Assembly (NCBI RefSeq): GCF_003065605.1
Contig: NZ_CP026952.1
Location: 930,001 to 994,000, forward strand
Reading direction: 5' to 3'
DNA length: 64,000 nt
From: Aeromicrobium chenweiae
Lineage (GTDB): Bacteria; Actinomycetota; Actinomycetes; Propionibacteriales; Nocardioidaceae
In this document: positions 2,848 to 34,176 of the stretch, in pieces
How the letters are laid out: each line of letters opens with the position of its first letter
Position numbering within the stretch: the first letter of the stretch is position 1
The notes under the pieces: model-generated
Seen by the model: the letters and a program-made list of their open reading frames with translations, nothing else
What the model was told of the DNA's origin: nothing
Database searches by the model: none
Program-made: the position numbers and the translations under genes

Positions 2848-5593
<2,746 letters not shown>

Positions 5594-7833: not shown

Positions 7834-8601
7834 CTAGCGGCGGGAGATCGACTCCCGCAGGGCCCGGACGTGCTCGACGAACGCCGGCCGTGTGGTCGAC
7901 CAGGCCTGCGCCCGCGTCTCGGCGGCGAAGATCGCCTCGTGGTCCGGCGTCTGCTGGGCCTGACGAAGGGTCGAGACGTAGCGGCGGACGAGCGCACCCT
8001 CGATCCCGTCGAGGCGCGCCCCGAGCGCGAGCGCCTCGTCGATCAGCTTCTCGGGTGCGGTCACCTTCGCGACGAGCCCGACCTCGTGCGCGCGCTGGGC
8101 GTCCCAGCGTTCGCCGAACAGCACCGCGAGCGTGGCCTGCTGATGACCGACGGCCCGTTCCATCAGCCACGTGTGGCCGCCTCCGGGGTGCAGGCGCAGC
8201 TGGGCGAAGCGGGTGTCGAACCGGGCCGCGGTCGACGCGAGCCGGACGTCGCAGGCGAGGGCGAGGTTGAGCCCCGCGCCGACGGCCGGCCCGTTGACCG
8301 CCGCGATCGTGGCGAGCGGCGAGCGCAGGACACGCAGGAATCCCTCGTAGACCTCACGGACGTCGTCGAAGTCCCCGGCGGCGGACTGCTCCAGGGTGGA
8401 CAGCTCGGCGCCGGCGCAGAACGCCTTGCCGCGGCCCGTGACGACGAGCGTGTTGACCCCGGGCACCGACTCGGCGCGGGTCACGTCCTCGTCGATCGAA
8501 CGCACCATCGCCGAGGTCAGGATGTTGCGCCGGTCGGGGTCGTCGAGCGTCAGCAGGGCCGTGGCCCCCTGGATCGTCAGCGTGGTGGGGCGGGAGGTCA
8601 T
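7834..8601 (-). CDS. Enoyl-CoA hydratase/isomerase family protein
   Basis: 255 residues of crotonase fold. GRGKAFCAGAEL and AAVNGPAVGAGLNLALACD form the CoA site and oxyanion hole. At the place where hydratases carry the first catalytic glutamate (a PEI-like motif) this protein reads AQLRLHPGGGHTW, so ordinary hydratase chemistry is doubtful and an isomerase or other CoA reaction is possible. The ATG overlaps the stop of the PucR gene (ATGA), so the two are co-translated. Confidence 0.82.
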   Translation of the reverse strand: MTSRPTTLTIQGATALLTLDDPDRRNILTSAMVRSIDEDVTRAESVPGVNTLVVTGRGKAFCAGAELSTLEQSAAGDFDDVREVYEGFLRVLRSPLATIAAVNGPAVGAGLNLALACDVRLASTAARFDTRFAQLRLHPGGGHTWLMERAVGHQQATLAVLFGERWDAQRAHEVGLVAKVTAPEKLIDEALALGARLDGIEGALVRRYVSTLRQAQQTPDHEAIFAAETRAQAWSTTRPAFVEHVRALRESISRR

Positions 8602-10253
8602 GACGTCACGGTAGTGCCGCGCGTGCCCGGCCGAGGACGAGCCCGGCCGACGCGGATGTCGTGCACCAGCAGCGCGACGCCGAGCGACAGCACCGAGTCC
8701 GCGTCGTCCAGGTCGACCGCGAGGATCGACTCCAGCTTCCGCAGTCGGCCGTAGAGGGCCTGCCGGCTGATGTGGGTCGCCTGGGCCAGTGCTGCCTTGT
8801 TGCCGCGCAGCTCGACGTACCGGCGCAGCAGCTCGAGCAGGCCGGTCGCGTGCTCGGCCTCGTGTGCGAGCAGTGGGCCGAGCTCGGACTCCGCGAACCC
8901 GAGCACCCGCTCGTCGTCCTGCAGCTGCGCGACGAGACCGCGCAGGCGTACGTCGGTCGAGCGGAACCAGCGTGCCGACGACGGCTCGAGCGCCCGTGCG
9001 GCCTCGGCGACGTGCACAGCCGTGCGCATCCGCGAGGCCGCGACGAGGAGCGTGGCGGCGGCGCGGCCCACGCCGAGGACGGGGCCGGACGCGGGGGCGG
9101 GCCCGTCGCGCCCGGTCGCGGTTGCGAGCGCCTCCAGGGCGGTGTCCTCCTGGACCCCCGGGCGCAGCGCGATGACGATCCCCACCCCGCCGTCGTCGAC
9201 ACTGCCGGCGATCGCGTCGAGGCGGGCCGTCACCAGCGCGTCCGAGACGGTCTCGAGCTGTGCGCGGGCACGCCGCTGACGGGCGACCTGGTCGGGCAAC
9301 GTCGCGCGCTCGAACAGTGCGACGACCGGCAGGTACGCGACGCCGGCTCGCATGCCGAGGGCGGCGGCCCGTGCCAGGCCGTCCGCCTCGTCCTGGACAC
9401 GGCCGTCCACGAGCTCCTGCAGCAGCGACTCCTGGGCCTGCGACTGCAGCCGGGTCGCGTCGCGCTCGACGAGTCGGGACAGCTGGAGCGCCTGGGCGGC
9501 GCGCTGCATGACCATCGCCGTCGTCGCCGGGTCGTGGGCGGGCTGCGGGGCCACGACGCGTCCCCACGGCGCACCTCGCAGGCCGACCGGGCACGTGAGC
9601 CACTGCTCGGGACCCGTCGTGCCGGCCTCCTCCAGCACCGGTGCGCGCCGGGAGCGCTCCTCCCACTCACGCAGGAGTGCCCCGGACGTCCGACCGTGGC
9701 GGGCGAGGGCCACCACGTGGTGCCCGGCGTCCTCCAGCACGACCGGCGCGTCGATCAGCCCGGCCGCCGCGGCGAGGATCGCGGACGCGTCGGCGCTGTC
9801 CAGGCTCAGGTTGGTGAAGACCTCGTGGGTCCGCTGCGCCAGCTCGAGCCCCTGGTACTGCTCGCCCACGATCAGGCGGTGCACCGCCTCGGTGATCGAG
9901 ACGAAGCGGACGGGGGAGTGCAGCGCGACGAGCGGCAGCTGCAGTCGCTCGGCCTGGCGCACCACGTCGGCCGGCAGCTCGGGCAGCCGGGGACCGAGCT
10001 CGACGATGAGGCCGCACGCGCTGGCCTGGGCGAGCTGGGTGACGAACCGCTGCGGATCGGCCGTCGGTCCCACCAGCGGGAGCCCGGTCGTCAGCACGAC
10101 CTCGTGGCCGCCGAGCAGGTCCGCCATGTCGTCGACCTCGGTCACGTGCACCCACCGCACGGGGCGGTCCAGAGCGTCCTCGCCGGCCAGCACCTCCGGG
10201 CGTCCCGCCACGAGGACGTCCAGTGCGAGGATCGTGCGCAGTGTCAATGGCAT
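8598..10253 (-). CDS. PucR family transcriptional regulator
   Basis: 551 residues. The N-terminal PucR domain starts at MPLTLRTIL and runs to about 125, a GGDEF-like regulatory middle follows, and the C-terminal PucR helix-turn-helix ends with RYVELRGNKAALAQATHISRQALYGRLRKLE. Such proteins usually activate or repress purine, amine or amino-acid catabolic genes nearby. It faces the amine catabolic operon and is coupled to the downstream hydratase-like gene. The ATG at 10253 matches the usual family start; one arm of the inverted repeat covers codons 2-5. Confidence 0.88.
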   Translation of the reverse strand: MPLTLRTILALDVLVAGRPEVLAGEDALDRPVRWVHVTEVDDMADLLGGHEVVLTTGLPLVGPTADPQRFVTQLAQASACGLIVELGPRLPELPADVVRQAERLQLPLVALHSPVRFVSITEAVHRLIVGEQYQGLELAQRTHEVFTNLSLDSADASAILAAAAGLIDAPVVLEDAGHHVVALARHGRTSGALLREWEERSRRAPVLEEAGTTGPEQWLTCPVGLRGAPWGRVVAPQPAHDPATTAMVMQRAAQALQLSRLVERDATRLQSQAQESLLQELVDGRVQDEADGLARAAALGMRAGVAYLPVVALFERATLPDQVARQRRARAQLETVSDALVTARLDAIAGSVDDGGVGIVIALRPGVQEDTALEALATATGRDGPAPASGPVLGVGRAAATLLVAASRMRTAVHVAEAARALEPSSARWFRSTDVRLRGLVAQLQDDERVLGFAESELGPLLAHEAEHATGLLELLRRYVELRGNKAALAQATHISRQALYGRLRKLESILAVDLDDADSVLSLGVALLVHDIRVGRARPRPGTRGTTVTS

Positions 10254-10285
10254 GCGGGTCAGGGTACGCCGCCGCATTGACACTG
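10239..10285. promoter_or_regulatory. Perfect 11-bp inverted repeat between pucR and the amine operon
   Basis: CAGTGTCAATG at 10239-10249 and its exact reverse complement CATTGACACTG at 10275-10285 are 36 bp apart centre to centre. The left arm is inside the pucR coding start and the right arm is in the intergenic region. The right arm overlaps a smaller palindrome, GACAC-T-GTGTC (10279-10289), and contains TTGACA in the plus direction. This is a candidate PucR binding site controlling both directions. Confidence 0.6.
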
Positions 10286-10375
10286 TGTCCACTCCGCCCG
10301 CGGGAACGCGACACCATGACCATGGTGCCGGGTCCGCCCACGCGGGAGGATGGACGGAACCTCCGAAGGAGCCCC

Positions 10376-11791
10376 ATGACCTCGCACCGCACGGTCTTCG
10401 AGCGGCAGGCGCCTGCCGCCCGCCAGGTGACGGACGCCCTTCGCGGGAGCCGGCGCGCGGTCTTCTGGCTCGAGGACGTCGAGACGTTCGACCGGCCCTC
10501 GCTCACCGGGACGATCGACGCCGACCTCACGGTCGTGGGCGGCGGCTACTGCGGGCTCTGGACCGCGCTGCTCGCCAAGCGCCGCGACCCCACGGCCCGG
10601 GTCGTGCTCCTCGAGGCCGAGACGATCGGCTGGGCGGCCTCCGGGCGCAACGGCGGGTTCGCCGAGGCCAGTCTCACGCACGGTGAGGACAACGGCCGTC
10701 GCCGCTGGCCCGAGGACTACGACACGCTCCACCAGATGGGCCTGGACAACCTCGACGCGATCGAGCGCGACGTCGCGGAGCTGAAGATGGACGTCCAGCT
10801 CGAGCGGACCGGCGTGCTCGAGGTCGCGTACGAGCCGCACCAGGTGCGCTGGCTCCAGGAGTCCGGCCGCGGCGAGTGGCTGGATCGTGACGCGGTGCAG
10901 GCCGAGATCGCGAGCCCCGTCTTCCACGCCGGACGCTGGGTCAAGGACGAGTGCGCACTGGTGCACCCCGGCCGTCTCGTCCACGAGCTCGCCCGGGTCG
11001 CGGCCGATCTCGGTGTCGAGATCTTCGAGCACTCCGCCGTCTCGGGCCTGGGGTCGGGCCGCACCGGGCGGGTCGACGTCCGCACGACCCGTGGCCTGGT
11101 GCGCAGCCGCACGGTCGCGCTGGCCACCAACGTGTTCCGGCCCCTGCTTCGCCGCTCGCGGCTCTCGACCGTGCCGGTCTACGACTACGTGCTGATGACC
11201 GAGCCCCTCAGCCCGGCCCAGATGAGCGACGTCGGCTGGGCGCACCGCCAGGGCGTCAGCGACCTCGCCAACCAGTTCCACTACTCCCGGCTGACCGCGG
11301 ACGACCGGATCCTCTACGGCGGATACGACGCGGTCTATCACGCGGGCCGCCGGGTCCGGCCCGAGCACGAGGACCGGGACGCCTCCTACCGCCGGCTCGC
11401 CTCGCACTTCCTCACGACGTACCCGCAGCTCGAGGGGCTCGGCTTCAGCCACCGGTGGGCCGGTGCGATCGACACCTCGACGCAGTTCTGCGCGTTCCAC
11501 GGGCTGGCCCGGCGCGGCCGGGTGGCGTACGCGGCGGGGTTCACCGGTCTCGGGGTCGCCGCGACCCGGTTCGCGGCGGAGGTCATGCTCGACCGGCTGG
11601 CCGGTGACGCCACGCCGCGCACGCAGCTGCAGATGGTGCGCAGGAAGCCGCTGCCGTTCCCGCCCGAGCCGTTCGCGAAGATCGGCATCGAGGCAACGAA
11701 GTGGTCCCTCGACCGGGCGGACCACCATGAGGGCCGGCGCAACCTGATGCTGCGCACCCTCGACCGCCTCGGGCTGGGGTTCGACTCATGA
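10376..11791 (+). CDS. FAD-dependent oxidoreductase (DAO family, gamma-glutamylputrescine oxidase-like)
   Basis: 471 residues. The FAD-binding turn is LTVVGGGYCGLWTALLAKRR (about 50-69), followed by AASGRNGGFAEA, a signature of the glycine-oxidase/PuuB branch. A C-terminal RRGRVAYAAGFTGLGVAATRFAAE closes the flavin site. It probably oxidises an amine or N-acylated polyamine to the aldehyde, handing over to the next gene. GAAGGAG precedes the ATG at 10376. First gene of the operon divergent from pucR. Confidence 0.82.
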   Translation: MTSHRTVFERQAPAARQVTDALRGSRRAVFWLEDVETFDRPSLTGTIDADLTVVGGGYCGLWTALLAKRRDPTARVVLLEAETIGWAASGRNGGFAEASLTHGEDNGRRRWPEDYDTLHQMGLDNLDAIERDVAELKMDVQLERTGVLEVAYEPHQVRWLQESGRGEWLDRDAVQAEIASPVFHAGRWVKDECALVHPGRLVHELARVAADLGVEIFEHSAVSGLGSGRTGRVDVRTTRGLVRSRTVALATNVFRPLLRRSRLSTVPVYDYVLMTEPLSPAQMSDVGWAHRQGVSDLANQFHYSRLTADDRILYGGYDAVYHAGRRVRPEHEDRDASYRRLASHFLTTYPQLEGLGFSHRWAGAIDTSTQFCAFHGLARRGRVAYAAGFTGLGVAATRFAAEVMLDRLAGDATPRTQLQMVRRKPLPFPPEPFAKIGIEATKWSLDRADHHEGRRNLMLRTLDRLGLGFDS

Positions 11792-11856
11792 CCGCCGAGA
11801 CACCGCGCCCGCCCGACGTCCCTTTGCCCGACCCCACGGAGGAACCGACCGCATGA
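11788..11856 (+). CDS. Possible 22-residue bridging ORF
   Basis: A complete ATG...TGA reading frame of 22 codons fills the gap between the FAD oxidase and the aldehyde dehydrogenase. Its ATG overlaps the oxidase stop (ATGA, 11788-11791) and its stop overlaps the dehydrogenase ATG (ATGA, 11853-11856). The product would be proline- and acid-rich (MTAETPRPPDVPLPDPTEEPTA, in order). The dehydrogenase ribosome site GGAGGA lies inside it. It could be a coupling device or a coincidence; no family is recognised. Confidence 0.35.
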   Translation: MTAETPRPPDVPLPDPTEEPTA

Positions 11857-13283
11857 GCGACATCGTCCAGAACTACGTCAACGGCGCCCTCGTGGACTCC
11901 GGGACCACCGACTTCATCGAGCTGGTCGACCCGACGACCGGCCTGGCGGGCGGCCGGTCACCGATCTCCACCGCGGCCGAGGTGGACGAGGCGTTCCAGG
12001 CGGCGCTCACGGCGTCGCGCACGTGGAAGCGGACGACGCCCAAGGCCCGTCAGCTCGCACTGCTGCGGATCGCGGAGGCCGTCGAGGCGGCTCGGGACGA
12101 GCTCGTGGAGCTGCAGGCGCGGGACACCGGACAGGTCAAGGAGCACATCGCGACCGAGGAGATCGACCAAGGCGTCGACCAGCTGCGGTTCTTCGCCGGC
12201 GCCGCCCGGTTGCTCGAGGGCAAGGCGACGGGGGAGTACGTCGAGGGGCTGTCGTCGAGCATCCGCCGCGAGCCGATCGGCGTCGTGGCACAGGTGACGC
12301 CGTGGAACTACCCGTTCGCGATGGCGATCTGGAAGATCGCGCCCGCGCTGGCCGCCGGCAACACGATCGTCCTCAAGCCGAGCGACACGACGCCGCGGTC
12401 GACGGTGCGGCTGGCCGAGATCGCCGGTGACGTCCTGCCGCCCGGCGTCCTCAACGTCGTCAACGGCGACGCCGGGACCGGCCGGCTGCTGGTCGAGCAC
12501 CCCGTCCCCGGGCTGGTCGCGATCACCGGGTCCGTGCGGGCGGGGATCGAGGTCGCGGTGTCCGCGGCACGGAACCTCAAGCGGGCCCACCTGGAGCTGG
12601 GCGGCAAGGCCCCGGCCGTCGTGTTCGCCGACGCCGACCTGGCCGCCGCGGCCGAGGGCATCGCGATGGGCGGGTTCTTCAACGCGGGCCAGGACTGCAC
12701 CGCCGCGACGCGGGTCATCGCCCACGAGAGCGTCCACGACGAGCTGCTCCGCCTCCTCGTCGAGCAGGCGAAGGCTGCCGGCCCCGGTGCTCCGGACGAC
12801 GCGGATGCGACGTACGGCGCGCTCAACAACGCGAACCACCTGGCCTCGGTCGAGCGGATGGTCGGCGGGATCGGCGACCACGCCCGCATCGAGGCGGGCG
12901 GCCGTCGCGTGGACCGTGACGGCTTCTACTTCGAGCCCACGGTGATCTCGGGGGTGCGGCAGGACGACGCGATCGTCCAGCAGGAGGTCTTCGGACCCGT
13001 GCTGACCGTCCAGGCGTTCGGCACCGAGGAGCAGGCCACCGAGCTCGCGAACGACGTCCCGTACGGGCTCGCGGCCAGCGTCTGGACGAAGGACCACGGG
13101 AGGGCGCTGCGGATGACCGCCGACCTCGACTTCGGCTGCGTGTGGGTCAACACGCACATCCCGTTCGTCTCGGAGATGCCGCACGGCGGCTTCGGCGCCT
13201 CGGGGCACGGCAAGGACCTGTCCGCGTACGGGCTCGAGGAGTACACGCGGGTCAAGCACGTCATGAGCAACGTGGAGGGCTGA
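11853..13283 (+). CDS. Aldehyde dehydrogenase (gamma-aminobutyraldehyde dehydrogenase-like)
   Basis: 476 residues of the ALDH superfamily, oxidising an aldehyde to the acid with NAD(P)+. PWNYPFAMAIWKIAPALAAGNT is the cofactor and substrate funnel. The general base is Glu248 in LELGGK and the nucleophile is Cys282 in NAGQDCTA. Its place between an amine oxidase-like flavoenzyme and a monoamine oxidase supports aminoaldehyde substrates such as 4-aminobutanal, made from putrescine. GGAGGA precedes the ATG. Confidence 0.9.
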   Translation: MSDIVQNYVNGALVDSGTTDFIELVDPTTGLAGGRSPISTAAEVDEAFQAALTASRTWKRTTPKARQLALLRIAEAVEAARDELVELQARDTGQVKEHIATEEIDQGVDQLRFFAGAARLLEGKATGEYVEGLSSSIRREPIGVVAQVTPWNYPFAMAIWKIAPALAAGNTIVLKPSDTTPRSTVRLAEIAGDVLPPGVLNVVNGDAGTGRLLVEHPVPGLVAITGSVRAGIEVAVSAARNLKRAHLELGGKAPAVVFADADLAAAAEGIAMGGFFNAGQDCTAATRVIAHESVHDELLRLLVEQAKAAGPGAPDDADATYGALNNANHLASVERMVGGIGDHARIEAGGRRVDRDGFYFEPTVISGVRQDDAIVQQEVFGPVLTVQAFGTEEQATELANDVPYGLAASVWTKDHGRALRMTADLDFGCVWVNTHIPFVSEMPHGGFGASGHGKDLSAYGLEEYTRVKHVMSNVEG

Positions 13284-13286
13284 CCG

Positions 13287-14642
13287 GTGACGGACGAGCA
13301 GGTCGACGTGCTGGTGGTGGGGGCCGGGGCCACCGGCCTCTCCGCGGCGTACGCGCTGCAGCGGGCCGGGCGATCGGTGCTGGTGCTGGAGTCGCGCGAC
13401 CGGGTCGGTGGGCGGCTGTGGACCGAGGAGGTCGACGGGGTCGACCTCGAGATCGGTGGGCAGTGGGTCTCGCCGGACCAGGAGGCGCTCCTGGCGATGC
13501 TCGACGAGCTGGGCCTCGAGACGTTCGAGCGGCACCGCGAGGGGGAGTCGGTCTATGTCGGCCTCGACGGCGAGCGTCGGACGTTCACCGGTGAGGTGCT
13601 GCCCGTCGCACCGGCCGTCGAGGCGGAGATGGACCGCCTGACCGAGCTGCTCGACGAGCTCTCGGCGCAGATGGACCCCGCCCGGCCTTGGGACATGCCC
13701 GGCGCCACCGAGCTCGACCACGTGACGTTCCGCGCCTGGCTCGACGAGCAGTGCGAGCACGAGGAGGCCCGCGACAACATCGCGATGTTCATCGCGCAGG
13801 CGATGCTGACCAAGCCCGCCCACACGTTCTCGGCGCTGCAGGCCGTCCACATGGCCGCGAGCGCGGGCAGCTTCAGCAACCTGGTCGACTCCGAGTTCAT
13901 CCTCGACCGCCGCGTCATCGGCGGGCTGCAGCAGGTGCCGCTGCAGCTGGCCGCCCGGCTGGGCGACGCGGTCCGCACGGGACACGACGTCGAGAAGGTG
14001 TGCTGGCACGACGGGGGAGTGACGGTCGCGTGCGGCGACCTGACCGTCAGCGCCCGCCACCTCGTCCTGGCCATCCCGCCGACGGCGGTCACCCGGGTGA
14101 GGTTCGAGCCCCCGCTGCCTTCGGTCCAGCGCGAGACCCGCCAGCACCAGTCGTTCGGCCAGGTCATCAAGGTCCACGCGACGTACGAGACGCCCTTCTG
14201 GCGCGACGCGGGGCTCTCCGGGACGGCGTTCAGCCCCTACCTGACGGTCCACGAGGCGTACGACAACACCAACCACGACGAGGACCGCGGCACGCTGGTC
14301 GGGTTCGTGTCCGACGTGCAGGCCGATGCGGTGCTCGCGCTCGACGCCGACCAGCGGCGCGCGATCATCCTGGAGTCGCTGCAGACCTACTTCGGCCCCG
14401 AGGCGGCGTCCCCGCTCACGTACTTCGAGAGCGACTGGACCTCCGAGGAGCTCGGCAGCGGTGCGTACGGCTCGAGCTTCGACCTGGGCGGCCTGACCCG
14501 GTTCGGTCCCCGCCTGCGCGAGCCAGCAGGCCCCATCCAGATCGGCAGCTCCGACGTCGCAGGCCTGGGCTTCCAGCACGTCGACGGAGCGCTGCGCGTC
14601 GGCGCCCAGATGGCGCGTGCCATCACCGACCCCACCAGCTGA
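13287..14642 (+). CDS. Flavin monoamine oxidase family protein (putrescine oxidase-like)
   Basis: 451 residues. The N-terminal FAD motif is DVLVVGAGATGLSAAYALQRAG (about 7-28), followed by the GG motif in RVGGRLWT. A C-terminal TRFGPRLREPAGPIQIGSSDVA flanks the flavin site. It is close in length and layout to actinobacterial putrescine/monoamine oxidases, which release aldehyde, ammonia and peroxide. The start is a GTG 3 bp after the dehydrogenase stop. Peroxide made here could matter for the nearby katG, but that link is inference. Confidence 0.87.
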   Translation: MTDEQVDVLVVGAGATGLSAAYALQRAGRSVLVLESRDRVGGRLWTEEVDGVDLEIGGQWVSPDQEALLAMLDELGLETFERHREGESVYVGLDGERRTFTGEVLPVAPAVEAEMDRLTELLDELSAQMDPARPWDMPGATELDHVTFRAWLDEQCEHEEARDNIAMFIAQAMLTKPAHTFSALQAVHMAASAGSFSNLVDSEFILDRRVIGGLQQVPLQLAARLGDAVRTGHDVEKVCWHDGGVTVACGDLTVSARHLVLAIPPTAVTRVRFEPPLPSVQRETRQHQSFGQVIKVHATYETPFWRDAGLSGTAFSPYLTVHEAYDNTNHDEDRGTLVGFVSDVQADAVLALDADQRRAIILESLQTYFGPEAASPLTYFESDWTSEELGSGAYGSSFDLGGLTRFGPRLREPAGPIQIGSSDVAGLGFQHVDGALRVGAQMARAITDPTS

Positions 14643-14671: not shown

Positions 14672-16048
14672 ATGAACGTCACCCGATCCGAGCACGACCG
14701 CCTCCAGCAGTCGGCCAAGGACCACCTGGTGCTGCACTTCTCGAAGCAGGAGATCGACGACCTGCTGGTCCTGGACCGCGGGGAGGGACCGTACGTCTTC
14801 GACACCACGGGCCGCCGCTACATCGATGCCCTCTCGAGCCTGTTCTGCTCGCAGCTGGGCTACTCGTACGGCGAGGAGATGGCCGACGCCGCGCGGCGGC
14901 AGCTGACGTCCCTCGCATTCAACACGAGCTGGGGGACCTCTCACCCGGCCGCGATCGACCTGGCCGAGAGGATCTCCGACCTCGCACCGGCCGACGACTA
15001 CCGGGTGTTCTTCACCGGCGGCGGCTCGGAGTCGGTCGAGGCCGCGTGGAAGATGGTGCGCGAGCACTTCATCGCGGTCGGCCAGCCGCAGCGCACCAAG
15101 GCGGTCGCGCGCGAGCGGGCGTACCACGGGGTGACGTTGGGAGCGCTGTCGTTCACCGGTGTGCAGCCGTTCAAGGAGGGCTTCGGCGCTCCACCCGTGG
15201 AGGTGGCGAGGGTCTCCAACACCAACGCGTTCCGAGCGCCGGACGCTCAGGACGAGGACGCGTTCTGCCGCCGTCTGCTGCAGGAGGTCGAGGACGCCGT
15301 CGTCGCGGCCGGTGCAGACGAGGTCGCGCTCATCATCGCCGAGCCCGTGCAGAACGCGGGCGGCTGCTTCACGCCCCCGGCGGGCTACTGGGCGGGCCTG
15401 CGACGGATCGCCGACACGTACGGCGCCCTGCTCATGGCCGACGAGGTCATCACCGGATTCGGCCGGATCGGGGAGTGGTTCGCGGTCTCGCGCGAGGACG
15501 TGGCGCCCGACCTCGTCACAGTCGCGAAGGGGCTCACCTCGGCGTACGCCCCGATGGGCGCGACCCTCGTCCGTGAGCGGGTCATCGCCCCGCTGGTCGA
15601 GCAGCGCAAGGTGTTCCGCCACGGCATCACGTTCGGCGGGCACCCCCTCAGCGCGGCGTTGGCGATGAAGAGCATCGAGATCATCGAGCGCGACCGGGTG
15701 CTCGAGAACGTCCGGGCGCAGGCGGATCCGCTGCGCGAGCGGCTCCACCACCTGCTGGAGCTCCCGATCGTCGGCGACGTCCGGGGCGCCGGCTTCTTCT
15801 GGGCGATGGAGCTGGTCAAGGACGACTCCGCGACCCGCTTCGACCAGGCCGAGCGCGACGACCTGCTGCGCGGCTTCCTGCCGGCCCGGTTGCGGGAGGC
15901 GGGGCTCATCGCACGCTGCGACGACCGCGGCGACGCGGTGCTCCAGATCGCGCCCCCGCTCATCAGCGACGCAGCGCTGCTGGACGACATCGCGGCCGGC
16001 CTGACCGACGTCCTGCGCGACGCCGGCAAGCACATGGGCGTGGGCTGA
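14672..16048 (+). CDS. PLP-dependent class III aminotransferase (putrescine/polyamine-pyruvate type)
   Basis: 458 residues. Class III aminotransferase features are FFTGGGSESVEAAWKM (phosphate-binding loop), RAYHGVTLGALSFTG, the LMADEVITGFGR Asp that holds the pyridine nitrogen, and the Schiff-base Lys286 in TVAKGLTSAYAP. It is likely an omega-amine:pyruvate or putrescine aminotransferase acting on the same substrates as the upstream oxidases. GAGAGG precedes the ATG at 14672. Last gene of the amine operon. Confidence 0.88.
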   Translation: MNVTRSEHDRLQQSAKDHLVLHFSKQEIDDLLVLDRGEGPYVFDTTGRRYIDALSSLFCSQLGYSYGEEMADAARRQLTSLAFNTSWGTSHPAAIDLAERISDLAPADDYRVFFTGGGSESVEAAWKMVREHFIAVGQPQRTKAVARERAYHGVTLGALSFTGVQPFKEGFGAPPVEVARVSNTNAFRAPDAQDEDAFCRRLLQEVEDAVVAAGADEVALIIAEPVQNAGGCFTPPAGYWAGLRRIADTYGALLMADEVITGFGRIGEWFAVSREDVAPDLVTVAKGLTSAYAPMGATLVRERVIAPLVEQRKVFRHGITFGGHPLSAALAMKSIEIIERDRVLENVRAQADPLRERLHHLLELPIVGDVRGAGFFWAMELVKDDSATRFDQAERDDLLRGFLPARLREAGLIARCDDRGDAVLQIAPPLISDAALLDDIAAGLTDVLRDAGKHMGVG

Positions 16049-33760: not shown

Positions 33761-34176
33761 GCCAGGGCCTCCCGGATCGTGGCGGCGTAGGTCTCGGCCT
33801 CGCCGTCGGCGTACTTGGTGCGCGGCCAGAAGAAGCCGCGCAGGCCGTCCCCCTTGGTGCGGGGGACGACGTGGACGTGCAGGTGGGCCACGCTCTGCGA
33901 CACCACGTTGTTCATCGCGACGAACGTGCCCTGCGCGCCGAGACCCGACGTGATCGCGGTCGCCACCCGCTGCGCGGTCGAGAACAGCGGGACGATCAGG
34001 TCCCCAGGAAGATCGGGCAGCGTGACGACGTGCTCGCGGGGGACCAGCAGCACGTGCCCCTTGAACACGGGGCGGACGTCGAGGAAGCCGACGACGTCGT
34101 CGGTCTCGAGCACCCGGGCCGCCTCGGTCGTCCCGGCCACGATCTGGCAGAACAGGCAGCCCGGGTCGCTCGTCAT
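33757..34176 (-). CDS. HIT family nucleotide hydrolase/transferase
   Basis: 139 residues. The catalytic histidine triad is HLHVHVVP (about 99-106), and the N-terminus CLFCQIVAG is the classical HINT start. It hydrolyses nucleotide phosphoramidates or related adenylated compounds. It is coupled to the zinc-ribbon gene and 18 bp downstream of the CotH gene. Confidence 0.92.
   Translation of the reverse strand: MTSDPGCLFCQIVAGTTEAARVLETDDVVGFLDVRPVFKGHVLLVPREHVVTLPDLPGDLIVPLFSTAQRVATAITSGLGAQGTFVAMNNVVSQSVAHLHVHVVPRTKGDGLRGFFWPRTKYADGEAETYAATIREALA

What the first reader, a model, noticed from the sequence alone, without database searches (positions are those of the whole stretch)
11788..11856. 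22-codon ORF that tiles exactly between two genes by ATGA overlaps
The ORF begins on the stop of the FAD oxidase and ends on the start of the aldehyde dehydrogenase. A double ATGA fit by chance is unlikely though not impossible in GC-rich DNA. It could let ribosomes pass from one gene to the next without leaving the message.
Basis: seen in the sequence. Interest (0 to 1): 0.5.

Follow-up and report, generated by a model that had tools for sequence, protein, structure and literature searches.

The report
In-frame scar of a lost gene
The 22-codon reading frame between two enzyme genes is what remains of a cupin gene after most of it was deleted in frame; both stop/start overlaps survived, so it may still hand ribosomes from one enzyme gene to the next.

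Summary
ORF 11788-11856 (MTAETPRPPDVPLPDPTEEPTA) overlaps the FAD-oxidase stop and the aldehyde dehydrogenase start by ATGA. It is best read as a gene remnant, not a chance fit. In four congeners and one Rhodococcus the slot holds a 119-127-codon cupin gene (PF05899), with ATGA or GTGA at both junctions in 5 of 5. Codons 3-22 align in frame with the last 19 codons of that cupin; none of 20,000 shuffles and none of 2,815 control ORF ends score as high. In the oxidase tree the window and G048, the only other species seen with a 22-codon version, sit among cupin bearers. So about 100 codons were lost in frame, leaving start, tail, Shine-Dalgarno-like site and both overlaps: a natural counterpart of a Keio knockout scar. 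The peptide has drifted; only the ends are conserved. A present-day ribosome-relay role is plausible but not shown. Indirect support: at pbpA-pknB of the same genus a tiled mini-ORF occurs in 32 of 47 genomes, length varying but frame mostly kept. Against: furA-katG in this window.

The parts
10322..11791 (+). FAD-dependent oxidoreductase (DAO family), upstream partner; stop TGA 11789-11791
   Evidence: PF01266 E 9.4e-48; start codon of the gene not determined, an in-frame ATG at 10322 was used
11788..11791 (+). ATGA overlap 1: oxidase stop / mini-ORF start
   Evidence: the same site is the cupin start (ATG or GTG) in G044, G020, G005, G007 and Rhodococcus AW25M09
11788..11856 (+). 22-codon mini-ORF = in-frame deletion remnant of a cupin gene
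11795..11856 (+). segment homologous to the last 19 codons of the cupin gene (plus one extra codon)
   Evidence: local alignment to the G020 and G044 cupin 3' ends, same frame, 46 and 45 of 59 aligned bases identical; 0 of 20,000 shuffles (G020 tail) and 0 of 2,815 control ORF ends (either tail) reach the score
11838..11843 (+). GGAGGA, Shine-Dalgarno-like site for the ALDH, inside the remnant
   Evidence: read; last 27 nt of the remnant 26/27 identical in G048, where the site reads GAAGGA
11853..11856 (+). ATGA overlap 2: mini-ORF stop / ALDH start
   Evidence: an ATGA or GTGA overlap joins cupin and this ALDH in 5 of 5 cupin-ALDH operons
11853..13283 (+). aminobutyraldehyde dehydrogenase family gene, downstream partner
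   Evidence: PF00171; NF010000 626 bits, cut-off 615
13287..14642 (+). flavin amine oxidase, next gene of the operon
   Evidence: PF01593 E 7.9e-69; follows the ALDH in 6 of 6 loci that carry this ALDH (L128, L129, L028-L031); not found behind the more distant ALDH of G008 (L130)
14672..16048 (+). aminotransferase-like gene, next gene of the operon (named by me from the sequence; no family search was run on it)
   Evidence: start found; follows the amine oxidase in L127, L128, L028-L031 and L033, not within the 8 kb read of G034 (L129)
8598..10292 (-). divergent regulator, weak match to PmfR
   Evidence: NF045769 47.5 bits, far below its cut-off of 800

Best explanation
The mini-ORF is the remnant of a small EutQ-like cupin gene that stood between the oxidase and the ALDH in the ancestor and overlapped both by ATGA or GTGA. 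In the common ancestor of this species and G048 about 98-100 internal codons were lost in frame. The start codon and the last ~19 codons stayed, including the stop and the Shine-Dalgarno-like site of the ALDH, so both overlaps survived. Supported by comparison: the ancestral slot, the homology and frame of the tail, the place of the loss on the tree, and relaxed constraint on the middle of the peptide. Inferred: ribosomes ending the oxidase reinitiate on the mini-ORF and then at the ALDH, and this relay is why an in-frame remnant persisted (I put this functional half at about even odds; the confidence below is for the origin).
For: Full cupin (119-127 codons) in the slot in G044, G020, G005, G007 and Rhodococcus AW25M09, ATGA or GTGA at both ends in 5 of 5; Cupin_3 PF05899 55.4 bits. 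Mini-ORF versus G020 cupin tail: score 38, 46 of 59 aligned bases, one 3-nt gap, same frame; best of 2,815 control ORF ends 29, 0 of 20,000 shuffles; versus G044 tail score 35, best control 33. Tree: window+G048 (100/98) inside a clade (96/95) with the cupin bearers G044, G020, G005 and Rhodococcus. No cupin in the own genome at E 0.01, while the same query finds the operon's cupin in G044, G020, G005, G007. Oxidase stop is ATGA/GTGA in 39 of 42 non-identical loci with a cupin hit behind it and in 9 of 56 without. Cupin stop is ATGA/GTGA in 5 of 5 loci followed by this ALDH and in 3 of 32 others (37 of the 42 cupin loci examined). G048 versus window: first 10 nt 10/10, middle 15/32, last 27 nt 26/27, while fourfold sites are 0.63 (oxidase) and 0.59 (ALDH) identical.
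Against: G048's version alone does not match the cupin tails significantly (47 of 500 shuffles against G020, 225 of 500 against G044); its kinship rests on the ends it shares with the window. The middle of the two mini-ORFs is not better aligned than shuffles (1300 of 5000 gapped, 645 of 5000 ungapped). An in-frame deletion is expected 1 time in 3, so selection for the frame at this locus is not shown. G034 lacks the cupin and joins oxidase and ALDH directly by ATGA, so a mini-ORF is not needed for coupling. The ALDH has its own Shine-Dalgarno-like site. No expression data.
Confidence: 0.8

Rival explanations
1. Pure decay: the remnant is a neutral leftover. The in-frame deletion was a 1-in-3 chance, the ALDH is translated from its own Shine-Dalgarno site, and the mini-ORF does nothing. 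(This shares the cupin origin with the best explanation and denies only the relay.)
For: Only two species have it; the peptide middle is near random and all three frames are open after the oxidase stop; GGAGGA lies 9 nt before the ALDH start; the furA-katG double overlap of this window is absent from G048, so such fits can come and go.
Against: Length, frame and both overlaps are the same in G048 despite heavy drift, though this is weak; at pbpA-pknB in the same genus frame is mostly kept while length varies.
Confidence: 0.4
2. A selected small protein: the 22-residue peptide itself has a function.
For: Open in two species; 7 of the last 8 residues are the same in both.
Against: Only 11 of 22 residues identical to G048 while ALDH is 446 of 476 and oxidase 424 of 478; several tail residues of the cupin are replaced by Pro or Asp; no Pfam hit. 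The conserved end coincides with the ALDH initiation site.
Confidence: 0.04
3. Chance fit of spacer DNA between two genes.
For: Double fits occur at a background rate (13 of 52, shifted frames 7 and 3).
Against: Homology to the cupin tail in the same frame, and both overlaps present in the three-gene arrangement of relatives.
Confidence: 0.03
4. A mobile repeat of the MIRU type, which is reported to carry a small ORF that becomes coupled to the next gene.
For: Same geometry at the downstream start (passage of the review PMC12548453).
Against: Single copy: next best match in the own genome E 0.26. In the genus only G048, at the same site, matches over the full length (E 2.4e-14); the 14 other listed matches are 21-41 bases long with E 2.3e-4 to 0.009.
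Confidence: 0.01

Closest known systems
Keio-type in-frame deletion scar (E. coli knockout design)
   Same: Start codon and last codons of the deleted gene kept in frame, with the downstream ribosome site, so that a short peptide should couple the neighbours; the 34-residue scar and its purpose are stated in passages of PMC8547470.
   Different: Natural, 22 residues, arisen by deletion. PMC8547470 reports that 34 residues were not enough for most genes tested, so the natural scar may work only in part.
Translational coupling by 4-nt overlap (termination-reinitiation)
   Same: ATGA junctions, the commonest spacing of unidirectional gene pairs (PMC10666635 passages).
   Different: Two overlaps in series with a 22-codon ORF between; no measurement here.
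MIRU small ORF of mycobacteria
   Same: A short ORF coupled to the next gene with -4 spacing (PMC12548453 passage).
   Different: MIRUs are repeats that appear mobile; this is a single-copy gene remnant.
EutQ-like cupin gene (PF05899) of the oxidase operon
   Same: Parent of the mini-ORF: same slot, same frame, same tail.
   Different: The cupin domain is gone.
pbpA-pknB mini-ORF of Aeromicrobium (found here)
   Same: Tiled by ATGA in 32 of 47 genomes; free peptide, mostly kept frame.
   Different: No known parent gene; recurrent across the genus; 7-56 codons in the tiled cases.

Membership tests
Remnant (pseudogene) of the operon's cupin gene | Same position between the same neighbours as an intact homologue in relatives | tested here: met
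Remnant (pseudogene) of the operon's cupin gene | Sequence homology to the intact gene beyond chance | tested here: met
   for the window; for G048 alone not significant against the tails
Remnant (pseudogene) of the operon's cupin gene | Loss derived, not ancestral, on a tree | tested here: met
   (nested position; the fork that joins window+G048 to G020/G005/Rhodococcus has 91/82, and some deeper forks are weak)
EutQ-like cupin PF05899 | Cupin domain present | tested here: not met
   no Pfam family in the 22-aa product; about 100 codons missing
Termination-reinitiation coupled genes | Stop/start overlap or gap of a few nt at each junction | tested here: met
Termination-reinitiation coupled genes | Downstream translation depends on upstream translation | not testable with these tools
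   needs reporters or ribosome profiling
Termination-reinitiation coupled genes | Overlap geometry conserved by selection | tested here: inconclusive
   this locus: two species only; pbpA-pknB of the genus: 9 of 14 independent length differences are multiples of 3, against 15 of 51 at control junctions; furA-katG not conserved
MIRU-type repeat | Several copies in the genome | tested here: not met
Regulatory leader/uORF (attenuator) | Conserved peptide or stall codons | tested here: not met
   peptide middle not conserved between the two species that have it
Regulatory leader/uORF (attenuator) | RNA structure or terminator | tested here: not met
   193 of 200 shuffles of 11770-11890 fold at least as well; no terminator-like site in 11500-12000

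The most novel reading that the evidence does not exclude
Aeromicrobium operons use relay mini-ORFs in which only frame and the two stop/start overlaps are selected, while length and peptide drift freely; a dead gene caught between two coupled genes is retained as such a relay, so double-overlap mini-ORFs can be readable fossils of lost operon genes. The window's ORF is one made from a dead cupin, and pbpA-pknB is a genus-wide one.
Probability: 0.35. Interest if true: 0.6.

Novelty: new variant of a known kind. Interest (0 to 1): 0.4.

Why it matters
It catches, in nature, the operation that geneticists perform on purpose: removing a gene from a tightly overlapped operon while keeping a small in-frame scar, so the neighbours stay linked. 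If selection keeps such scars, translational coupling limits how operons can lose genes, and short double-overlap ORFs, easily passed over in annotation, become markers of lost genes and a test bed for reinitiation. The pbpA-pknB junction gives 14 independent pairs of genomes with different lengths on which that idea can be tested further.

Tried and rejected
Chance fit: rejected because of the cupin homology, although double fits have a real background rate. MIRU-like repeat: rejected by copy number. Functional peptide: unlikely because of drift. Attenuator: no structure or terminator found. Cupin moved elsewhere: none found in the own genome.

Compensating frameshifts between the window and G048 (an idea from one gapped alignment): not supported, 1300 of 5000 shuffles reach the gapped score. 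Cupin origin of the 24-codon double-overlap ORF of G021 (oxidase to amine oxidase, ALDH also missing): not supported by alignment to eight cupins (109 to 494 of 500 shuffles); descent from the G034 spacer inconclusive (770 of 5000). The furA-katG double overlap of this window as a second conserved case: rejected; as parsed, none of the other 29 loci shows an ATG/GTG-started tile (30 of the 45 matches were fetched, and in some of them the junction could not be parsed).

The first gene finder missed the window's own known pair and was replaced; one search is not used. The oxidase fourfold figure was made without aligning an indel and is replaced. Literature searches for a described natural in-frame scar or serial-overlap mini-ORF brought up no such report in the listings seen and the passages read; (this operon in Aeromicrobium) returned no paper at all. 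Three papers were read, in passages only.

Full report
OBSERVATION. The neighbours are a DAO-family FAD oxidoreductase (PF01266) and an aminobutyraldehyde dehydrogenase family protein (PF00171; NF010000 above cut-off), followed by a flavin amine oxidase (PF01593) and a gene I read as an aminotransferase. Polyamine catabolism is my inference from these families. The window lies at 930001-994000 of a 3.72-Mb genome.

HOW UNLIKELY BY CHANCE. With a home-made gene finder on 400 kb of the own genome, 400 kb of G048 and the window, 52 genes ended in ATGA/GTGA with a close next gene that was not directly overlapped. In 13 of them (this ORF included) the ORF starting on that stop ended on a candidate start of the next gene, against 7 and 3 for the two shifted frames; among 239 genes with other stops the three frames gave 26, 20 and 37. 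The geometry alone therefore has a noticeable background rate. Starts were not curated, so these are rough numbers.

WHAT IT IS. I located the oxidase in the 49 genomes of the genus that are held (20 with a match at E 1e-80) and in 80 loci of a genome collection (the best 80 of 563), and read what follows it. The operon with an ALDH at least 86% identical occurs in the window genome, G048, G044, G020, G005, G007, G034 and Rhodococcus AW25M09. In G044, G020, G005, G007 and the Rhodococcus a 119-127-codon cupin gene fills the slot. It starts on the oxidase stop and its stop carries the ALDH start (ATGA or GTGA each time) in all five. Pfam places it in Cupin_3/EutQ-like PF05899 (55.4 bits); the four solved relatives found are listed as uncharacterised or hypothetical proteins. 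G048 has a 22-codon ORF (MTAASRPPTRPQQTDPTKEPTA), again with both overlaps. G034 has no ORF between: the oxidase stop is directly the ALDH start.

Aligned to the cupin genes, the window's mini-ORF matches their 3' ends in the same frame: AETPRPPDVPLPDPTEEPTA against TETLRKIYVLLPD-TEDPPA of G020, 46 of 59 aligned bases identical (45 of 59 with G044). The score without the terminal overlap bases is 38 against G020 and 35 against G044. None of 20,000 shuffles reach 38, and among 2,815 control 3' ends (open frames of at least 150 codons on both strands of the two 400-kb samples and the window; not all are genes) the best are 29 and 33. Against more distant cupins the match fades (G005: 2 of 500 shuffles, Rhodococcus: 7, G007: 25; G041, G019, G022: 55, 347, 266), as expected. 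G048's mini-ORF does not match cupins convincingly by itself (47 of 500 against G020; the lower figures against G007 and G019, 18 and 26, are not at the cupin tail). It shares its first 10 and 26 of its last 27 bases with the window.

The oxidase tree puts window and G048 together (100/98) inside a clade (96/95) with the cupin bearers G044, G020, G005 and Rhodococcus; the fork uniting them with G020/G005/Rhodococcus has 91/82. The simplest history is one in-frame loss of about 98-100 codons in their common ancestor. The cupin query finds no match in the window's genome at E 0.01 but finds the gene in G044, G020, G005 and G007, the positive controls; G048 has two distant cupins elsewhere (37% and 32% identity).

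THE OVERLAPS ARE INHERITED. Over 98 non-identical oxidase loci, the oxidase stop reads ATGA/GTGA in 39 of 42 with a cupin hit behind it (tblastn, E below 0.01, G044 cupin as query, so remote cupins may be missed) and in 9 of 56 without. Those 9 are the window, G048, G021, G034, G008 and L040, L067, L096, L107. By eye, G034 and G008 have an ALDH starting there, and L040 and L067 may be truncated cupin starts; L096 and L107 I cannot assign. The cupin stop reads ATGA/GTGA in 5 of 5 loci followed by this ALDH and in 3 of 32 others (which examined 37 of the 42 cupin loci; L022, L023, L061, L065 and L076 were left out). So each overlap tracks a coupled neighbour, and the window kept both after the gene between them was gutted.

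DOES IT STILL DO ANYTHING. Against: only two species have it; the middle of the mini-ORF is near random between them (15 of 32; 645 of 5000 shuffles do as well) and all three frames are open after the oxidase stop; the ALDH has GGAGGA 9 nt before its start. For: the conserved part is the part that holds the ALDH initiation site and overlap, while fourfold sites of the neighbours are only 0.59-0.63 identical; and the bare gap of 61 nt would be too wide for reinitiation in the pairs measured in PMC10666635 (abstract and passages), although that paper cites other work that saw coupling across longer gaps. RNA across the junction folds more weakly than most shuffles (193 of 200 at least as well).

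A TEST WITH MORE POWER. One tiled mini-ORF lies between pbpA and a pknB-like kinase gene (named by me from the sequence; outside the window, at 33.8 kb of the genome). I read this junction in 47 of 49 genomes (two had no pbpA match). pbpA as parsed ends in ATGA/GTGA in 47 of 47. The ORF starting there stops exactly on the kinase ATGA in 32, 4-5 nt before the start in 10, and otherwise in 5 (two inside the kinase gene, one 22 and one 31 nt short, one fused in frame); the 31-nt case (G016) may be a frame-shifted pbpA end. Gap length runs from 16 to 163 nt; 38 of 47 are 1 mod 3, and of 23 distinct lengths 15 fall in that class, 7 and 1 in the others (binomial P 0.0017). On a tree, 14 independent pairs differ in length and 9 of the differences are multiples of 3 (P 0.017). 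At control junctions between G000 and G048 (upstream stop not ATGA/GTGA in both) 15 of 51 length differences are multiples of 3 (Fisher P 0.027). This is moderate support that frame is under selection while peptide and length are free. The junction was chosen after it was seen, and kinase starts were picked by a rule that uses a Shine-Dalgarno motif. The furA-katG double overlap of this window (3291-3329) is a counter-example: G048 has a 3-codon ORF there, six relatives have a direct overlap, and none of the other 29 loci as parsed shows a started tile.

COMPARISON WITH THE KNOWN. Short coupled ORFs that may deliver ribosomes, and MIRUs with a -4 junction, are in a 2025 review (PMC12548453, passages). 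The engineered Keio scar is a 34-residue in-frame peptide meant to keep coupling, and was found not enough for most genes tested (PMC8547470, passages). The window's ORF resembles such a scar in layout; it is not a MIRU (single copy) and no longer a cupin.

VERDICT. Origin as an in-frame remnant of the operon's cupin gene: strong. Present function as a relay: plausible, about even. Most of the value lies in the general question it opens, for which pbpA-pknB gives first evidence.

Noticed in passing
outside the window: G000:C1 about 33770-33830 (minus strand), L177-L223: A mini-ORF between pbpA and a pknB-like kinase, 7-56 codons when tiled, unrelated peptides, tiled by ATGA in 32 of 47 genomes of the genus with frame mostly kept.
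   Followed up: yes
window 3291-3329: 12-codon ORF ([12 protein letters not shown]) tiled between a Fur-like regulator gene and a KatG-like gene by GTGA and ATGA; not conserved in G048, while six relatives have the two genes directly overlapped. Gene names are mine from the sequence.
   Followed up: yes
L033 / L127 (G021), between oxidase and amine oxidase: 24-codon ORF (MTGTTPLRPGQVAPHPEAQEEAQA) tiled by ATGA at both ends, with both cupin and ALDH missing; origin unresolved.
   Followed up: partly
L023 (G025), between oxidase and cupin: 28-codon ORF tiled by GTGA at both ends between the oxidase and the cupin; its two ends carry near-identical 16-nt stretches, as if a short piece had been inserted; in G011 (L022) the cupin frame opens directly on the oxidase stop.
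   Followed up: no
L129 about 4148-4195 (G034): 13-codon ORF (MTPPRHSMKEGRA) tiled by ATGA between ALDH and amine oxidase; in G044 (L028) the same junction reads ATGAGATGA, a two-codon tile.
   Followed up: partly
L031 (Rhodococcus sp. AW25M09): Oxidase-cupin-ALDH-amine oxidase operon whose oxidase branches inside the Aeromicrobium part of the tree, which suggests horizontal transfer or a misnamed record.
   Followed up: no
window 50480 and 22808: Two further tiled ORFs (MNGRPA, 6 codons; and a 43-codon one) reported by the gene-finder scan.
   Followed up: no
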